64,000 bases of DNA from Rhodoplanes elegans (lineage in GTDB: Bacteria; Pseudomonadota; Alphaproteobacteria; Rhizobiales; Xanthobacteraceae). Of this stretch, positions 14,906 to 40,848 are shown piece by piece. The DNA lies in the NCBI RefSeq assembly GCF_016653355.1, contig NZ_NHSK01000074.1:70178-134177 (forward strand). Direction: 5' to 3'. The position numbers were made by a program, and so were the translations under genes. The first letter of the stretch is position 1; each line of letters begins with the position of its first letter. A model generated the notes under the pieces. That model saw only the letters and a list, made by a program, of their open reading frames with translations, was not told the DNA's origin and ran no database searches.

Positions 14906-15760
14906 TCAGGACTCGCTGCCCGCGACCTCGACCGGATGACCGGACTCGTCGAGCGAGTACCAAGTCATCGGTGTGATGCCCTCGCGGCCGACGATGCCGG
15001 CCCAGACGTGAGTAATCGCGCCGTCATCGTCACGGCGATCGAGATGCAACGCCGATCCTGCAACGCCCCGCACGCGGCCGTAGCGACCGCTCGCATGGGC
15101 GGTAGCCGTAGCGTGCATGGCCGAGGCCGCGCCCCTGTAGCCGGTGGCCGAGGCCGCGCCCCTGTCGCCGGTGGCCGAGGCCGCGCCCCTGTAGCCGGTG
15201 GCCGAGGCCGCGCCCCTGTAGCCGGTGGCCGAGGCCGCGCCCCTGTCGCCGGTGGCCGAGGCCGCGCCCCTGTAGCCGGTGGCCGAGGCCGCGCCGCTGT
15301 CGCCGGTGGCCGAGGCCGCGCCGCTGTCGCCGGTGGCCGAGGCCGCGCCGCAGTTGCCGGTGGCCGTTTCGCCCTCGATCGTTGCCCGCGACCACACATA
15401 ATCCCAGGCGCGCCGCACGAGGTCGCTGATCGAGAGTTCGACGTTGATCGTGATCCGTGCCGCAGCGATCTTCGTGTCGCTGTCGTTGCCGTCCATCTCG
15501 CCGGACAGCGTCACCTCGGCGTAGCGGTTGCTGGCTGGCGCGTAGTAGCCGAAAACGTCAAGCGGGTGTTCGCAGGCGTGGAAGCCCGAAGCGCAGGCTT
15601 CGATCTTGCCGGCGTGCTCGTAGGTCTTCCCGACCTCGTACTGATAGCCGCGGCAGCGAAGCTGCGCGTCGAAGCCCTTGAAGGCCGTGACAATATTCTC
15701 CACGGCCGGGGCGATTTCTGCGGTCGTGGCAGTCACCTCGGTCTTGCGTCTGCGAGCCAT
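14906..15760 (-). CDS. DUF7666-like protein with nine 9-residue repeats (284 aa)
   Basis: The N-terminal 130 residues (VTAFKGFDAQLRCRGYQY, then FHACEHPLDVFGYYAP) match a domain I recall as DUF7666. Residues 133-213 consist of nine tandem units of the form ATG-x-x-GAAS (ATGDSGAAS, ATGYRGAAS and so on). A C-terminal part follows (YGRVRGVAGSALHLDRRD). The repeats suggest a regular beta structure. Copy number probably varies between strains. The repeat DNA is perfect enough to slip during replication. Function is unknown. Confidence 0.7.
   Translation of the reverse strand: MARRRKTEVTATTAEIAPAVENIVTAFKGFDAQLRCRGYQYEVGKTYEHAGKIEACASGFHACEHPLDVFGYYAPASNRYAEVTLSGEMDGNDSDTKIAAARITINVELSISDLVRRAWDYVWSRATIEGETATGNCGAASATGDSGAASATGDSGAASATGYRGAASATGDRGAASATGYRGAASATGYRGAASATGDRGAASATGYRGAASAMHATATAHASGRYGRVRGVAGSALHLDRRDDDGAITHVWAGIVGREGITPMTWYSLDESGHPVEVAGSES
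15122..15364. repeat. Nine tandem 27-bp coding repeats
   Basis: The unit is 27 bp and codes ATG-x-x-GAAS in the leftward gene. Variation is restricted to the two codons at positions 4 and 5 (DS, YR, DR, NC). There are no unique spacers, so it is not a CRISPR array. Confidence 0.9.
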
Positions 15761-27547: not shown

Positions 27548-28272
27548 AGGACCAGACGAAACTCGAAACGCGCCTCGGGCATGGCGTTTGTGGGGTTTAT
27601 TCGATCGCAACGCCAACGGGAAAAGAGTACATCGGCTCAAGTGTTGACGTTCGCCGGCGGTGGTATGAACATCATTGGCGAATGAAGAACGGGAGGTCGA
27701 GCAGCCCTCAGTTGAGCAGGGCGTATGGGAAATATGGCTTGTTGTTGAAATTCTCCGTTCTGGAGGAATGCGACCCAGGCGAACTGAGGCGTCGTGAACA
27801 GTGGCATATAGACACACGAAAGCCTGCTCTGAATGCGTCTGATAATGCTTATTGTGCCGCGTTGTGGGCGGCCAAGAAGGGGGCGCAATTATCAGCGGGT
27901 GCTCAAGCGCGCCGCTGCGCCGTTGAAGATAGCATGGGCCGCCTGTACGAAAGTATTACATTTGCGGCAAAGACTATGGGTTGCTCGCAAGCGATGATGG
28001 CTCGGCGGATAGCCCACCATGATCCGTTTCCATGTGGGCTCCGATTTAGACGAATCGGTGAGATTTGGAAGCCGCTTCGCCCATCTCCTGAGGTGCGGAA
28101 GCGTGATGCCATAATCAAATCTCAGATTGAGCGACGCGCGGCTGGTAAGCTGGTCCACAGTGAGAAGGCGAAACTTGAGAAGAGCCTACGGACTAAGGGG
28201 GTTCCGTGGAGTCAGGAGCGACGGGCTAAGTTCTACGCCAAGAGCATGCTGAAGCAGCGTGGTGCCGCCTGA
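27544..28272 (+). CDS. GIY-YIG homing-type endonuclease (242 aa)
   Basis: The N-terminus GVYSIATPTGKEYIGSSVDV, then RRRWYEHHW matches the GIY-YIG nuclease (G-V-Y ... Y-I-G with the conserved Arg). The middle (DSMGRLYESITFAAKTMGCS) resembles NUMOD-type DNA-binding repeats of homing endonucleases. GC content is clearly lower than that of both neighbours, indicating recent arrival. It is wedged between helicase and primase with 4- and 1-base overlaps. Confidence 0.85.
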   Translation: MKDQTKLETRLGHGVCGVYSIATPTGKEYIGSSVDVRRRWYEHHWRMKNGRSSSPQLSRAYGKYGLLLKFSVLEECDPGELRRREQWHIDTRKPALNASDNAYCAALWAAKKGAQLSAGAQARRCAVEDSMGRLYESITFAAKTMGCSQAMMARRIAHHDPFPCGLRFRRIGEIWKPLRPSPEVRKRDAIIKSQIERRAAGKLVHSEKAKLEKSLRTKGVPWSQERRAKFYAKSMLKQRGAA

Positions 28273-29228
28273 TGGCGTTTCACGAGAAGACAGCCCTGGC
28301 GGCGACCGGGAAGTGGCGCGGCATCCTGCTCAGCTTCGGCGTTCCGGAGCGCGCCCTGTCAGGCAAACACGGCCCGTGCCCGATCTGCGGCGGGACTGAC
28401 CGGTTCCGGTACGACGACAAGGACCGTCGGGGCACCTGGATATGCGGCCAGTGCGGGGCAGGCGATGGGATGAAGTTGGCGATCGAGTTTACCGGCAAGC
28501 CATTTTCCGAGGTCGCGGCCCGCATCGACGAGATGCTCGGCAACCTAAAGCCGGATTCGACGCTGCCGAAGGTCGACTTGACGGACGAGCAGCGCATCAA
28601 GGCTCTGAGGGCCATTTGGGTTGAGACCCGTCCTGTGACCCCGGGCGATCTGGTGCATCGCTATTTCGATGCGCGCGGGATTGAGGAGCGGGTCGTCTAT
28701 CCGAGGGCTCTTCGGTTCGGCGAGCGCCTCAGGGACGGGGATGGTGGTGTCCGACCAGCTTTGGTCGCCATGGTCGGGTTGTTCGGAGTGCCGAAGTTTG
28801 TGTCGATGCATCGGACGTTTTTGCGGCCGGACGGACTCGCTAAGGCCGAAATGCCATCGCCTCGCAAGCTGATGCCCGGGAGCCTCCCGGATGGTGCCTG
28901 CGTCATGCTGAGCGACTACACCCACGGCCCCCTTGGGATCGCCGAGGGGATCGAGACTGCACTGAGCGCCAGCATCCTGTACGAAATGCCGGTGTGGGCT
29001 GCGATCAATTCGGCTCTCATGGCGAAATGGCACCCGCCACCAGCGTGCGATGAGGTCGCCATTTTCGGGGACAACGACCCGAAATACGGCGGTCAGTATG
29101 CGGCCTATTCGCTCGCCCACCGTCTCGCCGTCAAGAATATCGAGGTGTCAGTGCATATCCCCCCGATCGTCGGGCAGGACTGGAATGACGTCCTTATGGC
29201 GTCCCGGGGCCTGTCAGGCGGTGCCTAG
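28272..29228 (+). CDS. DNA primase with zinc finger and TOPRIM domain (318 aa)
   Basis: A zinc-binding segment (CPICGGTDRFRYDD, then WICGQCGAGDG) is followed by a TOPRIM-like domain: LGIAEGIETALSASIL, then VAIFGDND and DWNDVL. This is the P4/alpha-like primase architecture without a fused helicase. It should start lagging-strand primers with the helicase upstream. It ends in TAG, which matters for judging amber recoding. Confidence 0.85.
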   Translation: MAFHEKTALAATGKWRGILLSFGVPERALSGKHGPCPICGGTDRFRYDDKDRRGTWICGQCGAGDGMKLAIEFTGKPFSEVAARIDEMLGNLKPDSTLPKVDLTDEQRIKALRAIWVETRPVTPGDLVHRYFDARGIEERVVYPRALRFGERLRDGDGGVRPALVAMVGLFGVPKFVSMHRTFLRPDGLAKAEMPSPRKLMPGSLPDGACVMLSDYTHGPLGIAEGIETALSASILYEMPVWAAINSALMAKWHPPPACDEVAIFGDNDPKYGGQYAAYSLAHRLAVKNIEVSVHIPPIVGQDWNDVLMASRGLSGGA

Positions 29229-29245
29229 CAGAAAGGGCAAGCGGC

Positions 29246-29815
29246 ATGACCCTCACCGTCCACAACGCACCAGAGCGGCCGTCTCAGCCCGCTGTCGCGG
29301 CCGGGGCTTACCCGTACTGGCTCATCGCCCTGATCGAGCCGCAGCACGAAAAGCGGGCGCGTGACTGGCTATGGGAGTCCGCCGAGATCCCGAGCTATCT
29401 GCCGGTCGAGCGGGTGACGCAGGTGCGGCGAGGCCGAAAGGTCGATGTCGAAAACCTGATGATCCGGGGCTACCTGTTCGTGCCGGCGCTGTACGCCAAC
29501 CATGCCCAGATCCAGCGTGACGAGGTCCGCGGCATCCGAGGTCAATGGCGTTACGCCAGCGGCGCGCTGAAGCTGGTGCCTGACGCCGCGCTCAACCCGA
29601 TTCGGACGATCGAGGCCAACCTCAACGACCCGGCGTGGCTCGCCGGCAAACCGCGCAAGTATCGAGCGGGGCAGGCCGTTCGGCTGATCGATGGCGCGTG
29701 GCGCGGGCTGATTGCCACGGTCGACTCGCTTCGGGATGGGCAGAGGATCGTGGTGGACATCGGCGGGGTGCTCGGGCACGTCGAGCTTGGGGAGGAGCAC
29801 GTAACCCCGGCCTGA
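29246..29815 (+). CDS. NusG/RfaH-like transcription factor (189 aa)
   Basis: The N-terminal NGN-like domain (YWLIALIEPQHEKRARDWL, YLPVERVTQVRRGRKV, IRGYLFVP) is followed by a KOW domain (KYRAGQAVRLIDGAWRGLIA). These proteins bind RNA polymerase and modulate elongation. Its place just before the structured leader and late operon suggests it permits late read-through. Similar genes stand before terminase in other alphaproteobacterial phages. Confidence 0.85.
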   Translation: MTLTVHNAPERPSQPAVAAGAYPYWLIALIEPQHEKRARDWLWESAEIPSYLPVERVTQVRRGRKVDVENLMIRGYLFVPALYANHAQIQRDEVRGIRGQWRYASGALKLVPDAALNPIRTIEANLNDPAWLAGKPRKYRAGQAVRLIDGAWRGLIATVDSLRDGQRIVVDIGGVLGHVELGEEHVTPA

Positions 29816-29820
29816 TCCGC

Positions 29821-29948
29821 TTGACAAATCAACATGAGTCTGCATTACCTGCATGCAGCGTAGCGTGACCGCCCCGGCAATGCCCTGAGAGATGGGCGAG
29901 GACCGCGCACTTGGGCAACGGTCCAGGCTCAGGACACCGTTCTGAGTC
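29821..29948 (+). promoter_or_regulatory. Candidate late promoter and three-hairpin leader
   Basis: A consensus TTGACA (29821-29826) is followed by weak -10 options. Downstream lie three hairpins: GCCC/GGGC (29882-29897), GGACCG/CGGTCC (29900-29924) and GGCTCAG/CTGAGTC (29926-29948). With the NusG-like gene just upstream, this could be an antitermination or attenuator leader for the late genes. Confidence 0.45.
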
Positions 29949-30044
29949 GGCGTGCTGCTGCATCCACCGAAATCGCGAGACGAGATGCCCAGGCCACCGG
30001 CCATGCCGGATGAGGCACGGGCATCCGGTCCCATAGGACCCGAC

Positions 30045-30227
30045 ATGACCGTCACCCTCGTGCTGTGGCTGATCGTCGGTGGTGTCGACATCGCCGGACC
30101 GGGCATCCGCATGCCGGACCTCGCTACATGCCAGGCGCAGGCCGAGAAGTTCATGGCGATTGCGCCCCCCGATGAGGCGCAAGCCTACGGTGCGGCGTGT
30201 CTGATCACCCTTGGGAGCCGCAGCTAG
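30045..30227 (+). CDS. Small secreted or membrane-associated protein (60 aa)
   Basis: The ATG at 30045 has TAGGA upstream. MTVTLVLWLIVGGVDIAGPG is hydrophobic like a signal or anchor, followed by a helical part with two cysteines (LATCQAQAEKFM, AACLITLG). No family is recognised. It is the first gene of the late region. Confidence 0.6.
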   Translation: MTVTLVLWLIVGGVDIAGPGIRMPDLATCQAQAEKFMAIAPPDEAQAYGAACLITLGSRS

Positions 30228-30518
30228 GTGGCTCGCCTATCAGCCCGACAGCGTGGCTACTCGACCGCGTGGGACAAGGCCAGGGCTGGCTTCCTGCGCG
30301 ATCATCCCTGGTGCGCGATATGCCTCAAAGCAGGCCGCTACACCCAGGCAACAGTGGTTGACCACATCAAGCCGCATCGCGGAGATCAATCTCTGTTTTG
30401 GGATAGGTCGAACTGGCAAGCCTTGGACGCGACATGCCATTCGAGTGCGAAGCAGAAGGCGGAGAAAAGCGGCAAGCCTGTGAGGGTGACCGGGGTAGAC
30501 GGGTGGCCGATCGATTGA
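30228..30518 (+). CDS. HNH endonuclease of the packaging module (96 aa)
   Basis: The order RQRGYSTAWDKARAGFLRDH, then WCAICLKAG, VVDHIKPHRGD, LFWDRSNWQALDATCHSSAK is that of HNH proteins placed beside terminases (HK97 gp74-like), where they help cut cos DNA. It uses a GTG directly after the previous TAG. A cos-type packaging site nearby is therefore likely. Confidence 0.9.
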   Translation: MARLSARQRGYSTAWDKARAGFLRDHPWCAICLKAGRYTQATVVDHIKPHRGDQSLFWDRSNWQALDATCHSSAKQKAEKSGKPVRVTGVDGWPID

Positions 30519-30612: not shown

Positions 30613-31020
30613 ATGACGCCTCGCGGACGGAAATCTGCCGCCTCGCTTGAGGTTCTTCCGGCGAAAATTGAGGCTGTTCAACGACCTGACGCGCCATACG
30701 ACCTGACGGACGAGCAGGCGGCGGAGTGGTGGGCGGTCGTCAATCGGATGCCGGCGGACTGGTTTCCGCGCGAGACGCACGGGATGCTGACCGCGTATTG
30801 CCGGCACGTTGTGGCGGCGCGCCGGGTGGCGCAACTGATCGAGCAGGCCGAAAAAGCCGACCCGTTCGACGTCGCGAACTACAACACGCTGTTGATCATG
30901 CAGGAGCGCGAGGGCCGGGCGCTGTCGTCGCTCGCCACCCGGATGCGTCTTTCTCAGCAGGCCACGTTTGACAAGAAAAAGTCCAAACCGATCCAAGGCA
31001 AGAAGCCTTGGGAGGCCTGA
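30613..31020 (+). CDS. terS: Terminase small subunit (135 aa)
   Basis: The P27-family-like pattern is visible: PYDLTDEQAAEWWAVVNRMPADWF, then LTAYCRHVVAARRVAQLIEQ and REGRALSSLATRMRLSQQAT. It should recognise the packaging site and load the large subunit. Length is normal for the family. The 3' end overlaps the TTG-started TerL frame by 53 bp. Confidence 0.85.
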   Translation: MTPRGRKSAASLEVLPAKIEAVQRPDAPYDLTDEQAAEWWAVVNRMPADWFPRETHGMLTAYCRHVVAARRVAQLIEQAEKADPFDVANYNTLLIMQEREGRALSSLATRMRLSQQATFDKKKSKPIQGKKPWEA

Positions 31021-32530
31021 GACCCGCGCTGAGCGGAACATCCGGTGGATCGAGGAATTTTGCCGAATTCCAGAAGGGCGCGACGTCGGCAAGCCGGTTC
31101 GGCTCAGGCCATGGCAGCGCGACGAGATTCGTAAGATCTACGACAACCCGGCCGGCACGCGCCGGGCGATCCTGAGCTTCGGGCGGAAGAACGCCAAGAC
31201 GACGCTGTCGGCGTTCCTCTTGCTTCTCCACCTGTGCGGCCCGGAGGCGCGGCCGAACTCGCAACTGTTCTCGGCGGCGCAATCCAGGGATCAGGCCGCG
31301 CTGCTGTTCGCGCTGGCTGCGAAGATTGTCCGCATGTCGCCGGACCTCTTGGGCGTGGTAACGCCACGCGACACGGCAAAGCAATTGTACTGTTCCGATC
31401 TCGGGACGCTATACCGAGCGCTGTCGGCAGAGGCCAGCACGGCATACGGGCTCAGCCCGGTGTTCATCGTCCACGACGAGCTTGGCCAGGTGAAGGGGCC
31501 GCGTTCCGAACTCTACGAGGCGCTGGAGACAGCAACCGGGGCGCAGGACAGTCCGCTATCGATCATCATCTCGACACAAGCGCCGACTGATTCAGACCTG
31601 TTGTCGCTTCTGATTGATGATGCGATGGCTGGGCACGACCCGCGGGTCACGGTCTCACTCTATACGGCGCCGCAAGAGGACGACCCGTTCGTCGAGGCGA
31701 CCATCCGAAAGGCCAACCCGGCGTTCGGAGACTTCCTGAACGCCACCGAAGTCCTGGCGATGGCGGCTGACGCCAAGCGGATGCCGAGCCGCGAGTCGGA
31801 GTACCGCAACCTCGTCCTCAACCAGCGCGTCGAAGCGGCGTCACCGTTCGTTTCTCGTGCCCTGTGGCAGTCCTGTGGCGCCGACCCGTTGTCGATCGAA
31901 GACGTTGAGGTGTACGGCGGACTGGACCTCTCAGCGGTCAACGATCTGACAGCGCTGGTCCTGATTGGAAAGGTCTCCGGGGTTTGGCAAGTCCACCCCA
32001 CGTTCTGGCTCCCCCGTGACGGGCTGGCAGACAAATCAAGGACTGATCGCGTCCCCTATGATCTGTGGGAGCGGCAGGGTCAGCTTTGCACCGCGCCTGG
32101 GCGATCGATCGACTATGAGTTTGTGGCGAGCATTTTGCGCGAACAATGCCGAGCGCTCGACATTCGCAAGATCGCGTTCGACCGTTGGAACTTCAAGCAC
32201 CTCAAACCGTGGCTGCTTCAAGCCGGGTTCACAGAGGACGAGATCGCGGAACGGTTCGTCGAGTTCGGGCAGGGCTTCCAGTCGATGAGCCCGGCGCTGC
32301 GCGACCTCGAAAGTGAGATCTTGAACGGCCGGATCGCACACGGCAACCACCCGGTTCTTGCGATGTGTGCGGCGAACGCCGTGGTGCAGACAGACCCGAG
32401 CGGGAATCGCAAGTTGGCGAAGAACAAGAGCAGCGGGCGGATCGACGGCATGGTTGCTCTTACCATGGCAATGGGCGCGGCGCCGTCGGAAGACGAATCC
32501 GCCCCCCGCCCCTTCATCACCTTCCTCTGA
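30968..32530 (+). CDS. terL: Terminase large subunit (520 aa)
   Basis: The ATPase has RRAILSFGRKNAKTTLSAF as deviant Walker A and VFIVHDELGQV as Walker B. The nuclease part has GGLDLSAVNDLTALV and a C-terminal RIDGMVALTMAMG. This fits Terminase_1. The only early in-frame start is TTG at 30968, inside TerS, so translation may be coupled. It powers DNA packaging into the prohead. Confidence 0.93.
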   Translation: MTRKSPNRSKARSLGRPETRAERNIRWIEEFCRIPEGRDVGKPVRLRPWQRDEIRKIYDNPAGTRRAILSFGRKNAKTTLSAFLLLLHLCGPEARPNSQLFSAAQSRDQAALLFALAAKIVRMSPDLLGVVTPRDTAKQLYCSDLGTLYRALSAEASTAYGLSPVFIVHDELGQVKGPRSELYEALETATGAQDSPLSIIISTQAPTDSDLLSLLIDDAMAGHDPRVTVSLYTAPQEDDPFVEATIRKANPAFGDFLNATEVLAMAADAKRMPSRESEYRNLVLNQRVEAASPFVSRALWQSCGADPLSIEDVEVYGGLDLSAVNDLTALVLIGKVSGVWQVHPTFWLPRDGLADKSRTDRVPYDLWERQGQLCTAPGRSIDYEFVASILREQCRALDIRKIAFDRWNFKHLKPWLLQAGFTEDEIAERFVEFGQGFQSMSPALRDLESEILNGRIAHGNHPVLAMCAANAVVQTDPSGNRKLAKNKSSGRIDGMVALTMAMGAAPSEDESAPRPFITFL

Positions 32531-32542
32531 GGCATCGGTCGT

Positions 32543-34720
32543 ATGAGCTGGAGGAAGTGGCTGTTCTGGAAGACTCCGACCGAGGTCAAAGCGGTCGAGT
32601 TTTCGCCGGAACTGCTCTCCGCGATCCTGACCGGGTCGTGGGGCGGCCCGGCCAAGTCCGGCGCCTCGGTGTCGACCGGCTCGGCCCTGCAGGTGGCGGC
32701 GTGGTGGCGCGGCATCAACGTGATCGCCGACGGCATCCGCCAACTGCCGGTCGAGATCTACCGCGAGCTGCCGGACGGCCGCGGCTCGGAGCCGGCCAAG
32801 GACCACCCGCTCTACGACGTTCTGCGGCACAAGCCGAACCAGCACCAGAGCGCGGCCGACTTCTGGGGCACGGTGCTGCTGCACGCCGCCGGCGCCGGCC
32901 GGTCGGTGAGCTACAAGAACACGGTCGCCGGGCAGGTCCGTGAGCTCATCCCGGTCCGGCCGGACTGGGCGCATGTCGAGACGCTGGCCGACATGAGTCT
33001 GCGCTACCGCGTGACGTTCGAGAACTCGCGCAGCGCGACGCTCGAGCAGAACGAGGTGTTCCATCTCCGCGGCCCGAGCTGGGACGGCGTGGACGGGCTC
33101 AACCCGGTCGACCTCGGTCGCGAGGCGCTCGGCCTCGCCATGGCGACCGAAGAAAGCCATGCGAGGTTCCACGCCAACGGCGCGCGGCCCAGCGGCGCGC
33201 TGGTCGCGGACAAGGCGGCGAAGGCACTTGACCCTGCGGAGATCGACCGGCTCCGCGCGATGTTCGAGGAGAAGTACGTCGGCACGGCCAATGCCGGGAA
33301 GCCGATGATCCTGCAGGGCGGGCTCGACTGGAAGCAGATGCAGATGACGGGCGTCGACGCCCAGCATCTCGAAACCCGCAAGCACCAGGTCGCCGAGATC
33401 GCCCGCGTGCTCCGGCTGTGGCCGATCATGCTCGGGCTCGGCGGCGACGAGAGCCCGACGTTCGCGAGCGCCCTGGAGTTCATGCGGGCGCACGTCCGGT
33501 TCAGCCTGCAGCCGTGGCTCACGTCTATCAAGGGGGCGATCGAGTGCCAGCTTCTGACGCCTGAGGAGAGGCGCGAAGGCTACCACGTCAAGATCGACAC
33601 GGCCGAACTGCTCCGCGGGTCACCGCAAGAGCGCGCCGAGGCCTACAAGGCCGCGCTCGGGACGAACTCGTCGCCGGGTTGGGTGTCGATCAACGAGGTC
33701 CGCGAGGACGACGGGTGGAATCCGCTTGAGGGTGACCAGTTTTCGCGCCCGTGGACGCCGAAAGACTACGGCATGGACGGCGGAACCGCTGACGATCAGG
33801 GCGCGCTAGCTGATGGCGAGTTCTACGACGAGAACGGCGACCCGGTCGAGCCCGATCAGATCGTGAAGGTCGACGGCGAATGGTACGAGATCAAGCGGAA
33901 GGTTAGCAAGAAACCGGCCGGTGGCGCGCGACCGGACTTTCGCGAGGAGCTGCACCGCCGGGACCGCGGCGGACGGTTCGCGCCGAAGCCCGATGCCAAC
34001 CGCGGCGCCGCGCCGTCTCGTGATTATTCCAGCTATACCATGGACGACGGCGCGCTCCGGGCCGGGCGCGACGCTGGGATCTGGACCGACGAGGCCGACG
34101 CGAAGCGGCTGGTCGACAAGATGATGTCCGGGGTGCCGGTGGGTGAGCGGCTGCAGGTGACCGTGACGCGCATGCCGTCCGGCGACATCTTCGTCCGCGG
34201 GCAATCGGCCGGCGCGCGCGTCGAGCGCAGCTTTACGCGCGACGTCGAGTACGAGGCCGAGACGGGCCGCGTCGGTTACAAGGCCCGACACGAGCTGTTC
34301 TCGCTCGCGCCGAGCTATCAAGGCGGCGGGCACGCCAAGAAGATGCTCCGCGACGCGATCGACGAGTATCGGGCTCGCGGAATCACGGCGATCGAAGCGC
34401 AAGCGAACATCGACAAGGGCGGGTACGTGTGGGCGCGCCTCGGTTTCCGGCCACAGGCGCGAGCGACGAGGTTGATCAGGTCGGACACGCTCGATCACGT
34501 CGCGAAGTCGACGAAGCTCTCCGCTGCGCACAAGAAAATCATCACGGACATCGTGAACAACAGCAGCGACGACGACCTGATGTTCAACCTCGCCGCAGCG
34601 CGCGGCCCGCGCGGCAAGAAGATCGGGTACAGCCTGCTCGCCGGCTCAAACTGGTTCGGACGGCTCGACCTCACAAACGCAAAGGCCTACCGACGCGCCG
34701 TAAGGGCTTTGGCGTCCTGA
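32543..34720 (+). CDS. HK97-type portal protein with C-terminal GNAT-like domain (725 aa)
   Basis: Residues about 1-405 are a normal HK97 portal (AWWRGINVIADGIRQLPVEI, FHLRGPSWDGVDGLNPVDL, VAEIARVLRLWPIMLGLGG). A linker with the frequent RRDRGGRFAPKPD motif follows. Residues about 515-650 look like a GNAT acetyltransferase: the acetyl-CoA loop SYQGGGHAKKML, then AQANIDKGGYVWARLGFRP. Typical portals end near 400-500 residues, so about 300 are extra. The role of the extension is unknown; it may modify a capsid or host protein. Confidence 0.85.
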   Translation: MSWRKWLFWKTPTEVKAVEFSPELLSAILTGSWGGPAKSGASVSTGSALQVAAWWRGINVIADGIRQLPVEIYRELPDGRGSEPAKDHPLYDVLRHKPNQHQSAADFWGTVLLHAAGAGRSVSYKNTVAGQVRELIPVRPDWAHVETLADMSLRYRVTFENSRSATLEQNEVFHLRGPSWDGVDGLNPVDLGREALGLAMATEESHARFHANGARPSGALVADKAAKALDPAEIDRLRAMFEEKYVGTANAGKPMILQGGLDWKQMQMTGVDAQHLETRKHQVAEIARVLRLWPIMLGLGGDESPTFASALEFMRAHVRFSLQPWLTSIKGAIECQLLTPEERREGYHVKIDTAELLRGSPQERAEAYKAALGTNSSPGWVSINEVREDDGWNPLEGDQFSRPWTPKDYGMDGGTADDQGALADGEFYDENGDPVEPDQIVKVDGEWYEIKRKVSKKPAGGARPDFREELHRRDRGGRFAPKPDANRGAAPSRDYSSYTMDDGALRAGRDAGIWTDEADAKRLVDKMMSGVPVGERLQVTVTRMPSGDIFVRGQSAGARVERSFTRDVEYEAETGRVGYKARHELFSLAPSYQGGGHAKKMLRDAIDEYRARGITAIEAQANIDKGGYVWARLGFRPQARATRLIRSDTLDHVAKSTKLSAAHKKIITDIVNNSSDDDLMFNLAAARGPRGKKIGYSLLAGSNWFGRLDLTNAKAYRRAVRALAS

Positions 34721-34911
34721 TCAATCTGATCTGGCGTTGTCTTGGTCTGCACCATCAGCGTCAGCAGCATGGAGACGGGCTTCGGAACAGGGTACTCACC
34801 GGAAAGCCACCGCCTGACCTGCCGTCCGTTGCCGTGGCCTAGAAAGCGACCGGCGGACTCTTGGGAAAGCCTGAGTTTGTTGAGGGCGGCGCGTAGCTGA
34901 GACGGGGTCAT
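34687..34911 (-). CDS. Antisense XRE-type regulator (74 aa)
   Basis: MTPSQLRAALNKLRLSQESA, then GRFLGHGNGRQVRRWLSGEY is an XRE/Cro-like helix-turn-helix. The gene is read against the late operon and its end overlaps the portal end by 34 bp. It follows the 75-aa gene with a 2-base gap and shares its promoter at 35169-35197. It may be an antitoxin-like or immunity regulator active in the lysogen. Confidence 0.7.
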   Translation of the reverse strand: MTPSQLRAALNKLRLSQESAGRFLGHGNGRQVRRWLSGEYPVPKPVSMLLTLMVQTKTTPDQIDQDAKALTARR

Positions 34912-34913
34912 GG

Positions 34914-35141
34914 TCAGCCCCGCATCTTCGCCTGCCGTTGGTTCGGGGTCAGCGCAAACCACCGGCGATTGATCTCGGCAGAAATCAGGTCGAGATTGCG
35001 CTGAGCCATGGCGCGGGTCTGGGGCCGGCTGGTGGTGTCGGCGACGTCCTGGAGCCGGAGCTGCTCGGCTCCGAGTTGTTCGGTGGCCCATGTCCGGTAC
35101 TCGGCGCGGGCGGCGGCGGCGGTGTTGAGGTTGGTGGTCAC
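34914..35141 (-). CDS. Antisense cassette protein, partner of the XRE gene (75 aa)
   Basis: It begins MTTNLNTAAAARAEYRTWAT and is helical throughout (EQLRLQDVADTTSRP, LDLISAEINRRWFALTP). The GTG at 35141 has GGAGGGG upstream. No family is recognised. Its pairing with an XRE protein under a consensus promoter suggests a self-contained regulatory or toxin-antitoxin-like moron. Confidence 0.65.
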   Translation of the reverse strand: MTTNLNTAAAARAEYRTWATEQLGAEQLRLQDVADTTSRPQTRAMAQRNLDLISAEINRRWFALTPNQRQAKMRG

Positions 35142-35168
35142 TGGTTTCCCCTCCGTTTCAATATCTGA

Positions 35169-35197
35169 ACTATAGCGGACAACTCGTCCTAGGTCAA
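35169..35197 (-). promoter_or_regulatory. Near-consensus sigma70-type promoter for the antisense cassette
   Basis: Leftward TTGACC (35192-35197) and TATAGT (35169-35174) are 17 bp apart. This is the best canonical promoter in the late region and is followed by a strong ribosome site. Confidence 0.75.
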
Positions 35198-35206: not shown

Positions 35207-35376
35207 TGAAAGATTCCGTGGTCTACGACTTTTCCGGTTTTGCTCCGGCTGATGCGACCGACGGCACGGAAGAACTCCTGCCGGACGGCGATCTCGACGA
35301 CCTCGACGATGACGAGGCGCTGGTCGGGTTGCTGAAAGATGCCATCGCCGCCGGGGCGGCTGGCGAGAAGGACTAA
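35206..35376 (+). CDS. Small acidic protein (56 aa)
   Basis: The frame MKDSVVYDFSGFAPADATDG ends with an acidic run (GDLDDLDDDEALVGLL). It fits the gap before the protease in the late direction and has coding-like base use. The ribosome site is poor because the operator region lies upstream. Function is unknown. Confidence 0.5.
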   Translation: MKDSVVYDFSGFAPADATDGTEELLPDGDLDDLDDDEALVGLLKDAIAAGAAGEKD

Positions 35377-35380
35377 CGCA

Positions 35381-36115
35381 ATGGACATCCACGTCCTCGG
35401 CGCATCGCTCGAAATCAAGTTCATGGACGGCGGCGACTGCGCGCCCGGCACGTTCGAGGGCCTGGGAGCGGTTTTCGGCAACGTCGACAGCGTCGGGGAT
35501 CTGATCGAGCCCGGCGCGTTTTCCAAATCGCTCTACGCCTGCAAGGCCTGCGGCAAGTACCCGCCGATGCGCAAGATGCACGGCATGGGCGCGTCGAGCC
35601 TCGACCCGATCGGGGTCTGGGATCACATGGAGGAGGACAGCCGCGGCCTGATTGTCAAGGGCCGGCTCGTTGGGCTCGACACCGAGCAGGGCAAATGGAA
35701 CTACGCGCAGCTCCGCGAAGGCGCGCTGAAGGGCCTCTCGATCGGCTACCGCGTGTCGCCGAATGGCTCGCGCCGCGGCTCCGGCAAGATGGGCGAGCCA
35801 GCCCGCTACCTGAAACAGATCGACCTCAAGGAGGTCAGCCTCGTCGACATGCCGGCGAACGCGCTGGCCACGGTCACGGCGATGAAGAGCCTGTACGGCG
35901 CCGCCGCCGACATCAGTTTCGATCCTCGCGAGATGGAGGGCGCCCTGCGTGATGCCGGGCTCTCGCGCGCCGACGCCGTCAAGGGCGTGGCGGTCTTCCG
36001 CACCTACCTCCGGCGTGATGCCGGGGATGCCGATCCTGCCCTTCGTGACGAAGCGGCCGCGGCTGAGCTGGTCACTGCCATCAAGGCGGCGGCCGATCGC
36101 CTCCGGGCCCTGTAG
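35381..36115 (+). CDS. HK97-type prohead protease (244 aa)
   Basis: The S78-family hallmarks are visible: GTFEGLGAVFGNVDSVGDLI, then PGAFSKSL, His in MRKMHGMG, catalytic Ser in LKGLSIGYRV and ALLEVSLVDMPAN-like LKEVSLVDMPANA. It matures the capsid by removing the scaffold segment. A C-terminal helical tail (LRRDAGDADPALRDEAAAAE) may be a self-cleaved end. Confidence 0.92.
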   Translation: MDIHVLGASLEIKFMDGGDCAPGTFEGLGAVFGNVDSVGDLIEPGAFSKSLYACKACGKYPPMRKMHGMGASSLDPIGVWDHMEEDSRGLIVKGRLVGLDTEQGKWNYAQLREGALKGLSIGYRVSPNGSRRGSGKMGEPARYLKQIDLKEVSLVDMPANALATVTAMKSLYGAAADISFDPREMEGALRDAGLSRADAVKGVAVFRTYLRRDAGDADPALRDEAAAAELVTAIKAAADRLRAL

Positions 36116-36140
36116 CCCGACCGCACGAAGGACCATCATC

Positions 36141-37403
36141 ATGGAAGACGCGAAGCAGGCCATCGACGGCCTGATGACGGCGTTCGAGGAGTTCAAGTCC
36201 ACGAACGACGCCCGTCTGAAGGAGATCGAGAAGAAGGGCACGGCCGACCCGGTCGTGACCGACAAGCTCAGCAAGATCGAGAACACGATCGCTGGCTTCG
36301 AGGGCATCAACCAGCGGCTCACCCAGGCCGAGGCGCAGAAGAAGGCGCTCGACGACCTGAAGAGCCAGTTCGACGCGATCGAGCTGAAGGTCGGGCGCAT
36401 CGTCGGCAAGCCGCGCGACGAGGGCGAGAAGAAGGGGCGGGTCGAGACTTGGCTGCGCGCCGCTTGGCGGGCTCATGCCGTCGGCAAGACCAACCTCTCG
36501 GCCGATGAGGCCAAGGCCCTCGACGCGGTCGAGACCGAGATGAAGGCCCTCAACGTCGGCACCGACACAGCCGGCGGATTCCTCGCGCCCACCGAGTATG
36601 TGCGCGAGATCATCAAGGGCATCACCGATGTCAGTCCGGTTCGCAGTCTCGTCCGGGTGCGCCCAACGGCGAACAAGGCCATCCAGATCCCGGCTCGCCG
36701 CGGTCAGTTCGCCGCGCAGCGCGTCGGCGAGCAGGGCACGCGCACCGAGACGACCGGTCTCACCTACGGTCTGGAGGAGATCACCGCGCCGGAGATGTAC
36801 GCGCTGGTCGACATCTCCCGGCAGATGATCGACGACGCGGCCTTCGATATGGAGGGCGAGATCCGGATGGAGGCCGAGGAGCAGTTCGCCGTGAAGGAGG
36901 GCGCCGAGTTCGTCTCCGGCACCGGCGTCGGCCAGCTCGAAGGCATCCTGTCGAATTCGTCCGTCGCCGAGACCAACTCCGGCGCCGCGACGGCGATCGC
37001 CGCGGACGGCATGATCAATCTCTTCCACGGCATCAAGACGGCCTACACGCGGAATGCCACTTGGGTCCTCAACCGGACCACGCTGGGCTCGGTTCGGAAG
37101 CTCAAGGACACGACGAACCAGTACCTGTGGCAGCCCGGCGTCGCCAACGGCGTCCCGAACTCGATCCTGGGCGCGCCCTATGTCGAGGTGCCGGACATGC
37201 CGAACGAGGCGGCGAACGCCTACCCGGTGGCGTTCGGCGACTTCCGGCGCGCCTACACGCTGGTAGATCGCATCGTGATGGAACTGCTGCGTGACCCCTA
37301 CACGCAGGCCACCAGCGGCAACATCCGCTTCCAGTTCTGGAAGCGGGTCGGCGGCAAGGTCACGCTCGCCGAGGCGATTCGGAAAATGAAGTGTTCGACC
37401 TGA
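36141..37403 (+). CDS. Major capsid protein, HK97 fold (420 aa)
   Basis: The first 120 residues are a coiled-coil delta domain (LTQAEAQKKALDDLKSQFDA) that acts as scaffold and is removed by the protease. The shell part begins near LNVGTDTAGGFLAPTEYVRE and shows HK97 features (PARRGQFAAQRVGEQGTRTE, ALVDISRQMIDDAAFDME, VLNRTTLGSVRKLKDT). Length and order after the protease are as expected. Confidence 0.95.
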   Translation: MEDAKQAIDGLMTAFEEFKSTNDARLKEIEKKGTADPVVTDKLSKIENTIAGFEGINQRLTQAEAQKKALDDLKSQFDAIELKVGRIVGKPRDEGEKKGRVETWLRAAWRAHAVGKTNLSADEAKALDAVETEMKALNVGTDTAGGFLAPTEYVREIIKGITDVSPVRSLVRVRPTANKAIQIPARRGQFAAQRVGEQGTRTETTGLTYGLEEITAPEMYALVDISRQMIDDAAFDMEGEIRMEAEEQFAVKEGAEFVSGTGVGQLEGILSNSSVAETNSGAATAIAADGMINLFHGIKTAYTRNATWVLNRTTLGSVRKLKDTTNQYLWQPGVANGVPNSILGAPYVEVPDMPNEAANAYPVAFGDFRRAYTLVDRIVMELLRDPYTQATSGNIRFQFWKRVGGKVTLAEAIRKMKCST

Positions 37404-37476: not shown

Positions 37477-37899
37477 ATGGACGACCTCTACAGCTCCCTC
37501 AAGGTGACCCGTGTCATCCCGCCCGTCGCGGTCGGCACCACGGGCACCGGCCAGACCGGCAAGATCATTGATCGGCAGGGCTACGTCGGCCCGGTCCTGT
37601 TCACCGTCGGCTACGGAGCCATCACGTCGAGCACCGCGGTGTTCACGGTAACGGTGAAGGAGGGCGATGTCACCGGCACGCTCACCTCCGTGGCCGACAC
37701 CGACCTGATCGGCACCGAGTCCGCGGCCGGCCTCGCCGCCGGCGCCCGCACGTCGAACTCGACCAAGCTGGTCACCAAGAAGATCGCCTACAAGGGCGCC
37801 AAGCGGTACGTGCAGTGCAACGTGAAGAGCACTGCCACGGCCGGCACCCCGGTGCACGTCGACGCGTTCCAGCGCGCCGCGTCCGCCCCGGCGAGCTGA
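37477..37899 (+). CDS. Capsid-associated or decoration protein (140 aa)
   Basis: A beta-rich protein with many glycine and threonine residues (VGTTGTGQTGKIIDRQGYVG, VTVKEGDVTGTLTSVADTDL). Proteins of this kind often follow the capsid gene and cover the shell. The gene ends at a strong hairpin. Family membership is not certain. Confidence 0.65.
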   Translation: MDDLYSSLKVTRVIPPVAVGTTGTGQTGKIIDRQGYVGPVLFTVGYGAITSSTAVFTVTVKEGDVTGTLTSVADTDLIGTESAAGLAAGARTSNSTKLVTKKIAYKGAKRYVQCNVKSTATAGTPVHVDAFQRAASAPAS

Positions 37900-37911
37900 T
37901 CACGACACTTG

Positions 37912-37942
37912 CCCCGGGCCGGCCCCGAACTCCGGCCCGGGG
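37912..37942 (+). terminator. 11-bp perfect hairpin after the capsid genes
   Basis: CCCCGGGCCGG (37912-37922) pairs with CCGGCCCGGGG (37932-37942) around CCCCGAACT, followed by TTCCT. It probably lowers transcription of the enzymes downstream relative to capsid. Confidence 0.6.
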
Positions 37943-37976
37943 TTCCTCAGCGTCTCCGAACAGCGCAGGACACGAG

Positions 37977-39350
37977 ATGAGCCTCGACAACGGCGAGCGC
38001 CAGGTCGCGCCGACCATCGACGGAATCCGGGCCGACCACGTCGCCCGCTACAGGTGGGCCGCCGAGCGGCTGCCGGCCGGCTCCCGCGTGCTCGACGCGG
38101 GCTGCGGCATCGGATACGGCGCCCGCATCCTGGCCGAGGCCGGCCACAAGGTCGTGGCGCTGGACCGCAGCGCCGAGGCGCTCGCCTACGGCCGCGAGCA
38201 CTACGACCACGAGGGCATCGCCTGGCGCACCGGCGACCTGTCCGACCTCGGCGTGCTGCCCATGCTCGACGCCGTGGTCTGCTTCGAGGCGATGGAGCAC
38301 CTCGCCGAGCCGATCGCGTTCCTGCGTGAGGCCCGCCGGGTTGCGCCGCGGCTCCTGCTCTCCGTTCCGAACGAGCTCGGCATGCCGTTCGGCCGCCGCG
38401 GCTACGCCTTCCACCACCGGCACTACACGCCGGACCAGCTCGGATGGCACCTCGCTCGGGCCGGATTTGAGCCGAGCCTCTGCGGGTGGCAGGCGGACGC
38501 GGTCTCGCCAGTCATGGAAGAGTGGACGAGCACCGAGAGCTACCCGCGAACCCTAGTGGTCGACGCCAAGCGCGTCGCCCCGGCGCTGAACCTCGGCCCG
38601 GAGCCGGCCACGCCAGAGCGCGCCCCGCGCCACGTCGTCATCCTCGGGCTCGGCCCGTCGCTGGAGACCTTCGTCGACCTCGTGAAGCGCATGGGCGGCG
38701 CCTCGGCGCTCTGCGACGAGGTCTGGGGCATCAACGCGGTCGGCGACGTCATCGCGTGCGACAAAATTTTCCACCTTGACGACGTAAGGATCCAACAGGC
38801 GCGCGCCGAGGCATCTCCGACTAGCAACATCGCCGCGATGCTGCGCTGGATGAAGCGCCATCCCGGCCCGATCTACACCAGCCGGACCCATCCCGACTTC
38901 CCCGGCCTCGTCGAGTACCCGCTTCAGGACGTGCTCAACTCGATCGGGTTCGCCTACCTCAACAGCACCGCGGCCTACGCCGTGGCCTACGCGATTCACA
39001 TCGGCGTACAGGAGATCGGCCTGTTCGGCCTGGACTTCAGCTACGCCAACAGCCACCAGGCCGAGAAGGGCCGCGGCTGCGTCGAGTTCCTGCTCGGCAT
39101 CGCACACGCCCGCGGCATCCGGATCGGGTTCCCCGAGACCACCACGCTGATGGACGCGTGCGCACCGAACGACGAGCGGCTCTACGGCTACGACACGGTC
39201 CACGTCGACCTCGCAGGCGGCGGCGACGAACCGATCACCGTGGCGCTCCGCGAGCGTGAGACGATCGCGACGGCGGCCGAGATCGAGGCCCGCTACGACC
39301 ACGCCCGGCCCACCGTGCCGGCCGAGATGCTCGCCAAGGCCGCGGGCTGA
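37977..39350 (+). CDS. Methyltransferase fused to MptE/Maf-like (DUF115) domain (457 aa)
   Basis: Residues 30-200 are a class I methyltransferase (GSRVLDAGCGIGYGARILAE, VVALDRSAEAL, VVCFEAMEHL). From about 225 the pattern HVVILGLGPSLETFVDLVKR, YTSRTHPDFPG and EIGLFGLDFSYANSHQ resembles the MptE/DUF115 domain, also found in flagellin glycosylation (Maf) enzymes. It lies between capsid and connector genes. A role in modifying a virion glycan or protein is an inference. Confidence 0.75.
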   Translation: MSLDNGERQVAPTIDGIRADHVARYRWAAERLPAGSRVLDAGCGIGYGARILAEAGHKVVALDRSAEALAYGREHYDHEGIAWRTGDLSDLGVLPMLDAVVCFEAMEHLAEPIAFLREARRVAPRLLLSVPNELGMPFGRRGYAFHHRHYTPDQLGWHLARAGFEPSLCGWQADAVSPVMEEWTSTESYPRTLVVDAKRVAPALNLGPEPATPERAPRHVVILGLGPSLETFVDLVKRMGGASALCDEVWGINAVGDVIACDKIFHLDDVRIQQARAEASPTSNIAAMLRWMKRHPGPIYTSRTHPDFPGLVEYPLQDVLNSIGFAYLNSTAAYAVAYAIHIGVQEIGLFGLDFSYANSHQAEKGRGCVEFLLGIAHARGIRIGFPETTTLMDACAPNDERLYGYDTVHVDLAGGGDEPITVALRERETIATAAEIEARYDHARPTVPAEMLAKAAG

Positions 39351-39365
39351 CGACAGGAGATCTAC

Positions 39366-39632
39366 ATGGCGGCTGCGCAACTGATCGCGACCGGGGACAC
39401 GGCGACGAGCTCGTCCGACCAGACGGTCGCCGATGGCTCGACGCTGACCGTGGCGCTCAAAGGCGTCACGGGGTCTCAGGCCCGCGTCCTGATCGAGCTG
39501 AAGGACGACGGCGGCACCTACAACGTGGTTGGCGAACTGAACTCGCTGCAGCCCGCCACTGTGATCGCGGCGCCCGGCGTCTACCGCCTCACCCGCGTCG
39601 CCGGCGCGACCTGCGGGGTCTACAGTGGGTAG
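39366..39632 (+). CDS. Small beta-rich structural protein (88 aa)
   Basis: The sequence TGDTATSSSDQTVADGSTLT, then GVTGSQARVLIELKDDGG and PGVYRLTRVAGATCG looks like an Ig-like beta sandwich. An AGGAG site precedes the ATG. It may be a virion decoration or substrate of the flanking enzymes. No family is certain. Confidence 0.55.
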   Translation: MAAAQLIATGDTATSSSDQTVADGSTLTVALKGVTGSQARVLIELKDDGGTYNVVGELNSLQPATVIAAPGVYRLTRVAGATCGVYSG

Positions 39633-40848
39633 CCCGCTCCGTCCGGTGCTGCGGCCTCTGTTGAGGAGCCCGCTGCGCGATCCGCTCACCACGGGACAGG
39701 GTGTGCGGGTGACCCCCACGTTGCGAAACGTGGCCACGCGGTGCGCGATTCCGAACGTTCTGAGCACGACACTCAAGTATGCGAACGCGCGCCGCGCGCA
39801 CTACGCTCGGGACGCGATTGCGTCGTTGCAGATCGTCATCCCGAATTTCTACGTCAAGGCGACTGCCGCGACCGGAGAGGCTGGGACCGGCGGCACCGCG
39901 ACCGTGTCGGCGAGCATCGAGTATCCGCTCGGAACGCGCACACAGGTGCTGTTCTCCGGGGTCGCGACAGGTTCGATCCCGAACAACAGTTACATCGTTT
40001 CCGACGCGGTTGCTGTGTCGATTCCGAAGGATGCTCTATTTTACGTCTGGCTGCATTGGGAGAATGCGTCTGGGTTCCCTTATAGGAATTACACCGGTAA
40101 CAATCCTGGCGTGTTCGCGAGCGACGGCTACGAGTATTCGGCCTCGTCGCTCGCGGACAAGACGATGAGCGGGACGATCGCCAACAATTCTCCAACCAAC
40201 ACCAATGTATTCGGCTGCTGCGCGATTATTGCGATGTCGAAGCGGCCGGCGGTGCTGCTGATCGGCGATAGCCGATGCCTCGGTACGCGGGACTCCAATG
40301 TCGCAGGGTTCGGCGACCTCGGTGAGGTGGAGAAGAGCATCGGCCCGTCGCTCGCGGTTGCGAATTACGGAATTTCGTCGCTCACGGCGCAGGGGTGGAA
40401 CAACTCGCACGCGAACCAAGTCGCGTTGGCCCAGTATTTTCAGAACATCGTCATTCAGATTGGGGTCAACGATCTGTACAGCGGCGCATCGGCCGCAACT
40501 CTCATCACCAGAAACACGACGATCGCCGGAAACTTCACGGGAAAACGCATTTTCTATACGACGATCCCGCCAGAGACGACGTCGACGGACAACTGGGCGA
40601 CGGAAGTAAATCAGACGCCGGTGTCGGTTGAGAACGACACACAGCGGAAATCTTACAACGCCTCGGTTCGGGCCGGGTTGTCCGGAGCGTACGGCTATTT
40701 CGAAATCGCCGATGTGGTCGAAAGCGCACGGGATAGTGGCATATGGAAAGCTGGCTACACGCCTGATGGTGTGCACGAAAACGCAACGGCGACGGCCGCG
40801 ATCAAGGCGAGCGGTAACATCAACGCGACGGTTTTCGCGGCTACCTGA
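39625..40848 (+). CDS. SGNH/GDSL hydrolase (407 aa)
   Basis: The C-terminal half has all SGNH blocks: VLLIGDSRCLG (Ser), NYGISSLTAQGW (Gly), IQIGVNDLYSG (Asn) and the Asp-x-x-His of DGVHENATA. The N-terminal half is a beta-rich region. These esterases remove acetyl groups from surface polysaccharides. On a virion it would de-acetylate host capsule or O-antigen; it could instead act on a phage glycan with its neighbour. The GTG start overlaps the previous gene. Confidence 0.85.
   Translation: MGSPLRPVLRPLLRSPLRDPLTTGQGVRVTPTLRNVATRCAIPNVLSTTLKYANARRAHYARDAIASLQIVIPNFYVKATAATGEAGTGGTATVSASIEYPLGTRTQVLFSGVATGSIPNNSYIVSDAVAVSIPKDALFYVWLHWENASGFPYRNYTGNNPGVFASDGYEYSASSLADKTMSGTIANNSPTNTNVFGCCAIIAMSKRPAVLLIGDSRCLGTRDSNVAGFGDLGEVEKSIGPSLAVANYGISSLTAQGWNNSHANQVALAQYFQNIVIQIGVNDLYSGASAATLITRNTTIAGNFTGKRIFYTTIPPETTSTDNWATEVNQTPVSVENDTQRKSYNASVRAGLSGAYGYFEIADVVESARDSGIWKAGYTPDGVHENATATAAIKASGNINATVFAAT

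What the first reader, a model, noticed from the sequence alone, without database searches (positions are those of the whole stretch)
34080..34560. Portal protein carries an extra GNAT-like domain
A normal HK97 portal continues in frame for about 300 residues into a domain with an acetyl-CoA-type loop (SYQGGGHAKKML) and a GNAT-like end (GGYVWARLGF). Virion-linked enzyme domains on portals or MuF proteins can be delivered to the host with the DNA. I do not know a described portal-acetyltransferase.
Basis: partly seen in the sequence, partly recalled or inferred. Interest (0 to 1): 0.7.

Follow-up and report, generated by a model that had tools for sequence, protein, structure and literature searches.

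The report
Phage portal with acetyltransferase-like tail
A bacterial prophage has joined the protein ring through which its DNA enters and leaves the capsid to a domain shaped like an acetyltransferase enzyme, one of a large family of such domains attached to phage head proteins, probably as cargo carried into the next host.

Summary
ORF 32543-34720 (725 aa) is an HK97-type portal (PF04860, E 1e-82) running in frame into a folded domain, residues 499-725. The domain model is confident (pLDDT 96.5), its best structural matches are GNAT-type entries, and the acetyl-CoA loop QGGGHA is kept. It is not an ordinary portal tail: 0 of 30 related portals measured have more than 52 residues past the homology.

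The domain belongs to a large phage family (251 IMG/VR stretches), found on or behind portals, on MuF proteins and on a protease-capsid frame, with ART, zeta, Fic, 2H and anti-CBASS genes nearby. Four other distinct portal fusions, of two portal families, were found. In Methylobacterium indicum the domain is the gene next to the portal.

A junction peptide (consensus WDExxHPRDxxGRF; divergent here) lies between portal and domain in this and three of the four other fusions. Used alone it finds at least 120 viral stretches (reversed control 0); carriers include head proteins and varied effectors.

Best reading: a head-loaded GNAT effector tethered to the portal, a new variant of the polyvalent/MuF-toxin theme. 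Catalysis, packaging and injection are inferred. The junction peptide may be the more novel part.

The parts
32543..34720 (+). portal-GNAT fusion gene, 725 aa
   Evidence: single open frame
32699..33706 (+). Phage_portal domain, residues 53-388
   Evidence: PF04860, 278 bits, E 1.2e-82
33935..33991 (+). junction peptide, residues 465-483 (DFREELHRRDRGGRFAPKP), a divergent copy of the WDExxHPRDxxGRF motif (R in place of P)
   Evidence: 20.9 bits against a profile trained without it, 0 of 2000 shuffles, next best frame in the window 7.9
34037..34717 (+). GNAT-fold domain, residues 499-725
   Evidence: alignment of 107 relatives; model pLDDT 96.5, pTM 0.90; PDB matches
34319..34336 (+). acetyl-CoA loop QGGGHA, residues 593-598
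   Evidence: Q/R593 95, G596 97, A/S/G598 98 of 107 rows
34418..34447 (+). motif-B-like GGYVWARLGF, residues 626-635
   Evidence: sequence; its invariance in the alignment is built in by the search pattern
34652..34672 (+). C-terminal strand W704-L710
   Evidence: W704 105, G706 101 of 107 rows
30968..32530 (+). terminase large subunit, gene before the fusion
   Evidence: TerL_nuclease E 1.7e-28, TerL_ATPase E 2.2e-14
35339..36115 (+). S78 prohead protease (frame as listed; the ATG at 35381 is a likely start, by eye)
   Evidence: PF04586 E 4.5e-19
35949..37403 (+). HK97-type capsid protein (frame as listed)
   Evidence: PF05065 E 1.2e-75

Best explanation
The gene makes a portal protein whose C-terminus carries, on a junction segment, a GNAT-fold acetyltransferase-like domain as cargo. 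Shown or predicted here: a portal core; a GNAT fold with the acetyl-CoA loop kept; repeated attachment of the same domain family to portals, MuF proteins and a protease-capsid frame; company of other effector enzymes; a shared junction peptide. Inferred: since the C-terminal crown of portals lies on the capsid side of the channel, a virion would hold up to twelve copies of the domain inside the head; the domain is released, perhaps by cleavage at or near the junction peptide or at ejection, enters the next host with the DNA, and acetylates a host or defence target early in infection.
For: Fold: mean pLDDT 96.5; the 50 Foldseek rows shown are by title nearly all acetyltransferases (E 2e-3 to 1.3e-2); VIA-align Z up to 8.0 with GNAT-type entries. 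Acetyl-CoA loop kept in the window and in 95-98 of 107 rows per position. Not a normal tail: 0 of 30. Of 70 viral host proteins scanned: MuF 15; portal fusions are 6 rows (this phage's record L025, L088, L089 of the same layout, L050, L065, L090); ART 2; S78 plus capsid 1; InPase 1. Upstream neighbours: 28 portal-model hits among 54 proteins (families may overlap; one row set by hand). Downstream neighbours include Acb1, zeta toxin, Fic, InPase, papain-type toxin and 2H. Junction peptide between portal and GNAT here and in L050, L065, L090, and by itself a finder of head and effector proteins. In L026 and L057 portal and domain genes overlap by 4 nt.
Against: No direct proof of translation, packaging, injection or catalysis. 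Pfam scores of the window domain are below the curated cut-offs. No PDB match at E<=1e-3, and the aligner warns that Z of 7-8 is common. Trp630 seems to stand where GNAT toxins such as AtaT have a catalytic Tyr (alignment by eye, catalytic role recalled; no coordinates checked). L088/L089 lack the junction peptide. A portal ring stays with the virion as far as I recall, so injection needs release, for which no cut is shown. Only one weak match among 99 other related genomes, and cargo swapping on close relatives of this portal could not be shown. Many neighbours of the family have no informative Pfam hit or have non-head ones (topoisomerase, ribonucleotide reductase).
Confidence: 0.5

Rival explanations
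1. Structural or assembly accessory: the GNAT-fold domain serves head assembly or DNA packaging at the portal vertex, as MuF proteins do, without acting on the host.
For: Attachment to portal, MuF and protease/capsid proteins; conserved extra helices and C-terminal W-x-G strand; a possible change at the motif-B tyrosine position (by eye).
Against: 0 of 30 related portals carry it, so it is dispensable for such heads; the acetyl-CoA loop is kept; it also occurs in very long actinobacterial frames and in a WXG100-like and a papain-toxin protein, outside heads.
Confidence: 0.25
2. Active acetyltransferase that stays with the portal and acts late inside the producing cell or inside the head, for example on head proteins, and is not injected.
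For: Covalent tie to the portal; no release shown; a long or fused portal would be made in the producing cell.
Against: Other domains at the same position are typical injected or toxin-type effectors; the family also occurs as a separate gene (L026, L027, L057).
Confidence: 0.15
3. Polymorphic toxin with immunity: the domain poisons competitors or superinfected cells and a neighbouring gene protects the lysogen.
For: Structural matches include GNAT toxins TacT, AtaT, KacT; two small antisense frames with a promoter-like site lie next to it.
Against: The small frames have no Pfam match and nothing ties them to immunity; a portal gene is expected to be silent in the lysogen; general GNAT similarity does not pick the toxins out (Z values tied).
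Confidence: 0.07
4. Assembly or reading artefact: two genes run together by a sequencing error.
For: Relatives have two genes (L026, L057), and the region is in a draft contig with a 100-N gap and a 63-kb repeat.
Against: Both copies in the assembly agree and so does the IMG/VR record, though this may be the same sequence data; portal-GNAT fusions occur in four other distinct contigs and two portal families.
Confidence: 0.03

Closest known systems
Polyvalent proteins of phages and conjugative elements (PMC5512222; passages and section 11 seen)
   Same: Effector domains fused to virion proteins; portal fusions with PBECR, 2H and InPase; two GNAT families reported, one usually next to an ART domain in the same protein.
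   Different: No portal-GNAT fusion in the passages seen. The Alice gp113 GNAT showed no relation. The ART-linked GNAT family (BAR32501.1) could not be compared and may be this family: L075 and L099 here carry ART plus GNAT.
MuF polymorphic toxins of temperate phages (PMC5576092; passages seen)
   Same: Gene position behind the portal, C-terminal enzyme extension, proposed delivery with the DNA; 15 of 70 family hosts carry MuF.
   Different: In the window the carrier is the portal itself. That paper's main text has 0 occurrences of acetyltransferase or GNAT. Its unassigned domain Ct_MAD was not compared.
Rac of phiKMV-like phages and other phage GNATs (PMC7824862; passages seen)
   Same: A phage GNAT that modifies a host protein.
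   Different: As described there Rac acts on RNA polymerase; no fusion to a head protein is mentioned in the passages seen.
T4 internal proteins with the capsid targeting sequence (PMC3012670; passages seen)
   Same: Diverse head-loaded proteins that share only a short tag; a possible parallel to the junction peptide.
   Different: Other phages; I made no sequence comparison, and no loading function of the junction peptide was tested.

Membership tests
HK97-type portal proteins (PF04860) | match to the portal profile above the curated cut-off over its length | tested here: met
   278.2 bits against 39.1, profile positions 2-318 of 321; terminase before, S78 protease and capsid after
HK97-type portal proteins (PF04860) | portal fold in a structure model | tested here: inconclusive
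   full-length model with few portal rows: mean pLDDT 61.2, portal part mostly under 50-70
GNAT superfamily | GNAT fold | tested here: met
   predicted model only, pLDDT 96.5; Foldseek and VIA-align rows shown are GNAT-type, best Z 8.0 over 129 residues at 3.6 A
GNAT superfamily | acetyl-CoA loop Q/R-x-x-G-x-G/A | tested here: met
   QGGGHA at 593-598; 95, 97 and 98 of 107 rows at the three positions, S counted with G/A at the last
GNAT superfamily | score above a curated Pfam GNAT cut-off | tested here: inconclusive
   window 20.4 against 20.7 and 20.9 against 27; relative L079 scores 23.4 against 20.7. A detection limit, not a defining trait
GNAT superfamily | acetyl-CoA binding and acetyl transfer | not testable with these tools
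   needs purified protein
Polyvalent proteins | two or more domains, with an effector domain fused to or beside virion genes | tested here: met
   portal plus GNAT in a head cassette
Polyvalent-protein GNAT family 2 (Alice gp113) | sequence relation to Alice gp113 | tested here: not met
   profile against the single sequence: probability 0.35, E 0.17 over 27 columns; a weak test
Polyvalent-protein GNAT family 1 (ART-linked) | sequence relation to BAR32501.1 | not tested
   sequence not fetched; ART-GNAT proteins exist in the family (L075; L099)
MuF polymorphic toxins | MuF domain in the protein | tested here: not met
   no MuF match in the window protein at E<=1
MuF toxins / polyvalent proteins | delivery into the host from the virion | not testable with these tools
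   needs virion and infection experiments

The most novel reading that the evidence does not exclude
The peptide WDExxHPRDxxG[RKQ]F (and close variants) at the portal-GNAT junction is a general head-cargo tag of tailed phages: a short sequence that brings otherwise unrelated enzymes into the head, or marks where the prohead protease cuts them free, a counterpart of T4's capsid targeting sequence. The portal-GNAT protein is one member of a tagged cargo system.
Probability: 0.35. Interest if true: 0.8.

Novelty: new variant of a known kind. Interest (0 to 1): 0.55.

Why it matters
Tailed phages are thought to inject enzymes with their DNA, but how most such enzymes are loaded is not known to me. 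A GNAT fused to the vertex through which all DNA passes, with a relative that has the same domain as the overlapping next gene, gives a simple system in which loading, release and target can be tested. The shared junction peptide could turn the question of how HK97-type phages choose internal cargo into a direct experiment, and into a search tool for unknown cargo proteins. If the domain acetylates host or defence proteins at entry, it adds a protein-modifying activity to the ART examples.

Tried and rejected
Common portal tail: rejected (29 fetched loci of the order search plus one viral contig were measured; the remaining match rows were seen only as open frames of 403-540 aa). The one order-level frame of 737 aa (L194) is a terminase-portal join at the N-terminal side. 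Alice gp113 relation: none found. Full-length structure: portal part not interpretable. Close portal relatives with swapped cargo in viral contigs: only the window's own record and one distant portal, so swapping on this portal could not be shown. PDB search with the single sequence: two weak hits. Domain in related genomes: besides the own genome one weak match (E 2.9e-4, one stop inside) in the 100 searched. VIA-align rows are tied within about Z 2 and were not used to choose a substrate. A home-made iterated MuF profile labels 49 of 142 hosts MuF-like; it may have drifted, so Pfam counts are quoted, but the tree's MuF labels rest on it. Literal-string paper search for the junction peptide: 0 papers, weak evidence of novelty. 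A context search found no papers.

Selection effects. Relatives were fetched with the pattern GG[YW][ATV]W[AL][RK]xG[FY], so that motif's invariance is built in; R562, H583, Y609 and W704 were not selected for. The junction-peptide profile was trained on 16 peptides, eight of them from ten of the sixteen hosts that it later scores at 15 bits or more; the window, L050, L065, L090, L076, L056 and L071 were not in it. One of 387 shuffled hosts reached 15.0 bits, so L056 and L071 (15.3) are doubtful. Gene calls are simple longest-ORF calls. Of 71 upstream genes listed for viral loci I kept 54 (minus-strand calls and duplicates dropped), and L027's minus-strand call was replaced by hand with its portal frame (located). 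The downstream set was cut to 40 in the same way, and L025's row was replaced by hand with its S78 frame, which is the one S78 count. Of the 80 viral host loci 70 were scanned (left out: L034, L042, L043, L045, L061, L076, L077, L082, L084, L086, as duplicates, near-duplicates or open-ended). From the 70 genome-contig loci 43 proteins were scanned; giant, open-ended and duplicate ones were left out. Of 131 candidate domain rows 107 were aligned. Of 87 junction-peptide carriers 70 were scanned for length reasons and duplicates. Neither nor says how many members had no match, and each shows the first 25 of 38 and 34 families.

Full report
Observation. The frame 32543-34720 codes for 725 residues without a stop. 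Residues 53-388 are a nearly complete Phage_portal domain (278 bits, E 1.2e-82). The gene lies in an HK97-type head cassette: terminase large subunit 30968-32530, S78 prohead protease 35339-36115, capsid protein 35949-37403. After the portal there are about 290-330 more residues. The folded unit is residues 499-725, longer than the span given.

Is the tail ordinary? A search of 297 genomes of the order with the portal core (E<=1e-40) found matches in 47, the own genome included. I measured the tail in 29 fetched loci plus one viral contig: past the end of the portal homology they have at most 52 residues, so 0 of 30 have such an extension. The other match rows have open frames of 403-540 aa. 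The one long frame (L194, 737 aa) is a terminase-portal join at the other end.

What is the domain? Single-sequence evidence is borderline (Acetyltransf_1 20.4 bits, cut-off 20.7; phrog_1249 acetyltransferase E 7.1e-5). I collected relatives, aligned 107 and predicted the structure: mean pLDDT 96.5, pTM 0.90. Foldseek against the PDB has no hit at E<=1e-3; the 50 rows shown (E 2.0e-3 to 1.3e-2) are by title nearly all acetyltransferases, the rest (N-myristoyltransferases, FeeM and the like) I recall as the same superfamily. VIA-align gives Z up to 8.0 (129 residues, 3.6 A), again GNAT-type entries; the tool warns that Z of 7-8 is common, so the uniformity of the list counts more than the value. 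A profile search of PDB sequences lists 20 at E<=1, best 0.009: 13 named acetyltransferases, several uncharacterised or gene-named entries, a glucosaminidase with a GCN5-related region, and one helicase. Conserved positions in window numbering: R562 99, H583 95, Q/R593 95, G596 97, A/S/G598 98, Y609 102, W704 105, G706 101 of 107. Helices at 639-655, 661-673 and 676-684 come before the last strand 704-709. In viral predicted structures the best matches are long uncharacterised phage proteins and one named for head morphogenesis (E 4e-14 to 1e-8). Against activity: Trp630 seems to stand where some GNAT toxins have a catalytic Tyr (by eye and recall).

Family and contexts. In Methylobacterium indicum (L002 = L026 = L105) the domain is a separate gene that overlaps the portal stop by 4 nt (GTGA), followed by S78 protease and a gene that reads as a capsid protein by eye; in L057 the overlap is ATGA. 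In Pseudomonas Abidjanvirus phages and Alteromonas phage R7M it is at the N-terminus of a protein annotated hypothetical, morphogenesis or minor head protein; in Microbacterium phage Jera at the C-terminus of the capsid maturation protease; in a Micromonospora plasmid at the end of a 2'-5' RNA ligase family protein between minor head and major capsid genes. IMG/VR holds 251 related stretches (80 loci kept), GTDB contigs 72 (70 loci). Of 70 viral host proteins scanned: MuF 15, Phage_portal 4, Phage_portal_3 3, ART 2, and one each min_cap2, InPase, S78, capsid. The portal-bearing rows are L025 (this phage), L088 and L089 (same layout), L050, L065 and L090, which matches both portal models. L050 is portal-InPase-GNAT; L071 is GNAT-S78-capsid in one 1381-aa frame and L099 MuF-ART-GNAT. 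Of 43 genome-contig proteins: MuF 4, min_cap2 2, VG15 2, papain-type toxin 1, WXG100-like 1. Upstream neighbours (54): SPP1_portal 12, Phage_portal 9, Portal_Mu 4, Phage_portal_3 2, Phage_portal_2 1, DUF4055 2, ART-PolyVal 2, also topoisomerase IB 2, a ribonucleotide reductase and others (families may overlap). Downstream (40): S78_2 2, MuF 2, 2H 2, virion morphogenesis 2, one each of Acb1, zeta toxin, Fic, InPase and papain-type toxin, and S78 1, which is this phage.

Origin of the fusion. On a quick tree of 107 domains (53 of 104 inner branches open) the five portal-fused rows need five changes, and branches with support of 95 or more force at least two; the portal label is no more clustered than shuffled labels. 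The window lies in a 99-supported set of nine: seven domains on neither portal nor MuF, one on a MuF protein. So portal fusion arose more than once, and here probably from a neighbouring gene (inference).

Junction peptide. Several cargo proteins share a peptide, for example KHPRGPGGRF at residue 30 of the L026 protein and DWDESLHPRDEQGQF in L038. A 19-residue profile trained without the window scores residues 465-483 of the window protein (DFREELHRRDRGGRFAPKP, a divergent copy) at 20.9 bits; 0 of 2000 shuffles reach it and the next frame in the window has 7.9. It lies between portal and GNAT here and in L050 (26.4), L065 (19.0) and L090 (21.7), not in L088/L089. At 15 bits or more it occurs in 16 of 129 other hosts, before the GNAT in 13 of these, and in 13 of 1014 other genes of the loci, nine of them in two cassettes (L038 five, L100 four) and one just upstream of L065's fusion. 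So most hosts lack a recognisable copy. A DNA pattern for WDExxHP[RS]DxxGxF stopped at the limit of 120 stretches in IMG/VR (80 loci listed); the reversed peptide gave 0. Of 70 carriers scanned: MuF 7, ART 6, 2H 3, portal models 2, 1, 1 and 1 (may overlap), NUDIX 2, Acetyltransf_1 2, one each RelA/SpoT, LPD3, S-AdoMet lyase, S78_2, and unrelated singles such as oxidoreductases and helicase (25 of 38 families shown). Up to two genes upstream of carriers (70 genes, 44 loci): portal models 4 and 3, several terminase models at 2-3 each, MuF 1, min_cap2 1, but also topoisomerase, glycosyltransferase and AAA proteins (25 of 34 families shown). A short peptide thus recurs in head proteins and in very different enzymes. 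Its function is untested: loading tag, cleavage site or plain linker.

Mechanism. [quoted passage not shown] the P22 portal's C-terminal barrel extends inwards (PMC4992974, abstract start in the listing). A C-terminal fusion would therefore face the capsid interior. Delivery with DNA is the published proposal for MuF toxins and polyvalent proteins (PMC5576092, PMC5512222, passages seen), and described for T4 Alt there. Rac of phiKMV-like phages is described as a GNAT that acetylates host RNA polymerase (PMC7824862, passages seen). I infer loading with the portal, release, and acetylation of a target at entry. Every step after the fold is inference.

Known or new. Portal fusions to other effector domains and GNATs in polyvalent proteins are described (PMC5512222). 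A portal-GNAT fusion was not found in the passages read nor by the searches. I file it as a new variant of the head-linked effector kind. One literal-string search found no print of the junction peptide; subscription papers and preprints are largely outside the library.

Noticed in passing
window 1107-64000 (G000 contig C74 8178-134425): The prophage is present twice in tandem in the assembly: 63,142 bp at 99.997% identity, with a 36-bp terminator-like direct repeat at C74 7951, 71284 and 134390, probably att sites. A true double lysogen or an assembly artefact; 160 of 218 kb of the contig were examined.
   Followed up: partly
window 34687-35197, minus strand: Two small antisense frames (74 and 75 aa, one HTH-like by eye, no Pfam match) with a promoter-like site at 35197-35169 lie between the fusion gene and the protease; the first overlaps the fusion gene's 3' end.
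   Followed up: partly
L132, L144, L145, L148, L152, L153, L159-L162, L164-L166, L171, L173: The GNAT-like domain also sits inside open frames of roughly 2000-4200 aa in Mycobacterium, Mycolicibacterium, Micromonospora and Actinoplanes, twice in L152; what these giant proteins are was not followed.
   Followed up: no
L038 314-10071 and L100 2104-10227: Runs of neighbouring genes each carry the HPRD-type peptide (six and five with the GNAT gene counted), including a zeta toxin and a pterin dehydratase-ART-acetyltransferase protein.
   Followed up: partly
L071 4485-8627: One 1381-aa frame joins GNAT-like domain, S78 prohead protease and capsid protein.
   Followed up: no
window 37815-39350: Methyltransferase (E 1.5e-15) with a weak MptE-like C-terminal match, between capsid and tail genes.
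   Followed up: partly
window 39625-40848: Weak GDSL-type hydrolase match in the structural module (E 2.7e-5, below cut-off).
   Followed up: partly
window 27544-30518: GIY-YIG nuclease, primase-type Toprim protein, NusG-like protein and HNH nuclease in a row before the terminase.
   Followed up: partly
window about 15118-15366: Short tandem repeat with copies about 54 bp apart (from the self-comparison).
   Followed up: no
L194: A terminase large subunit-like frame (by eye) runs in frame into the second half of a portal, a probable deletion join in a decayed prophage.
   Followed up: no
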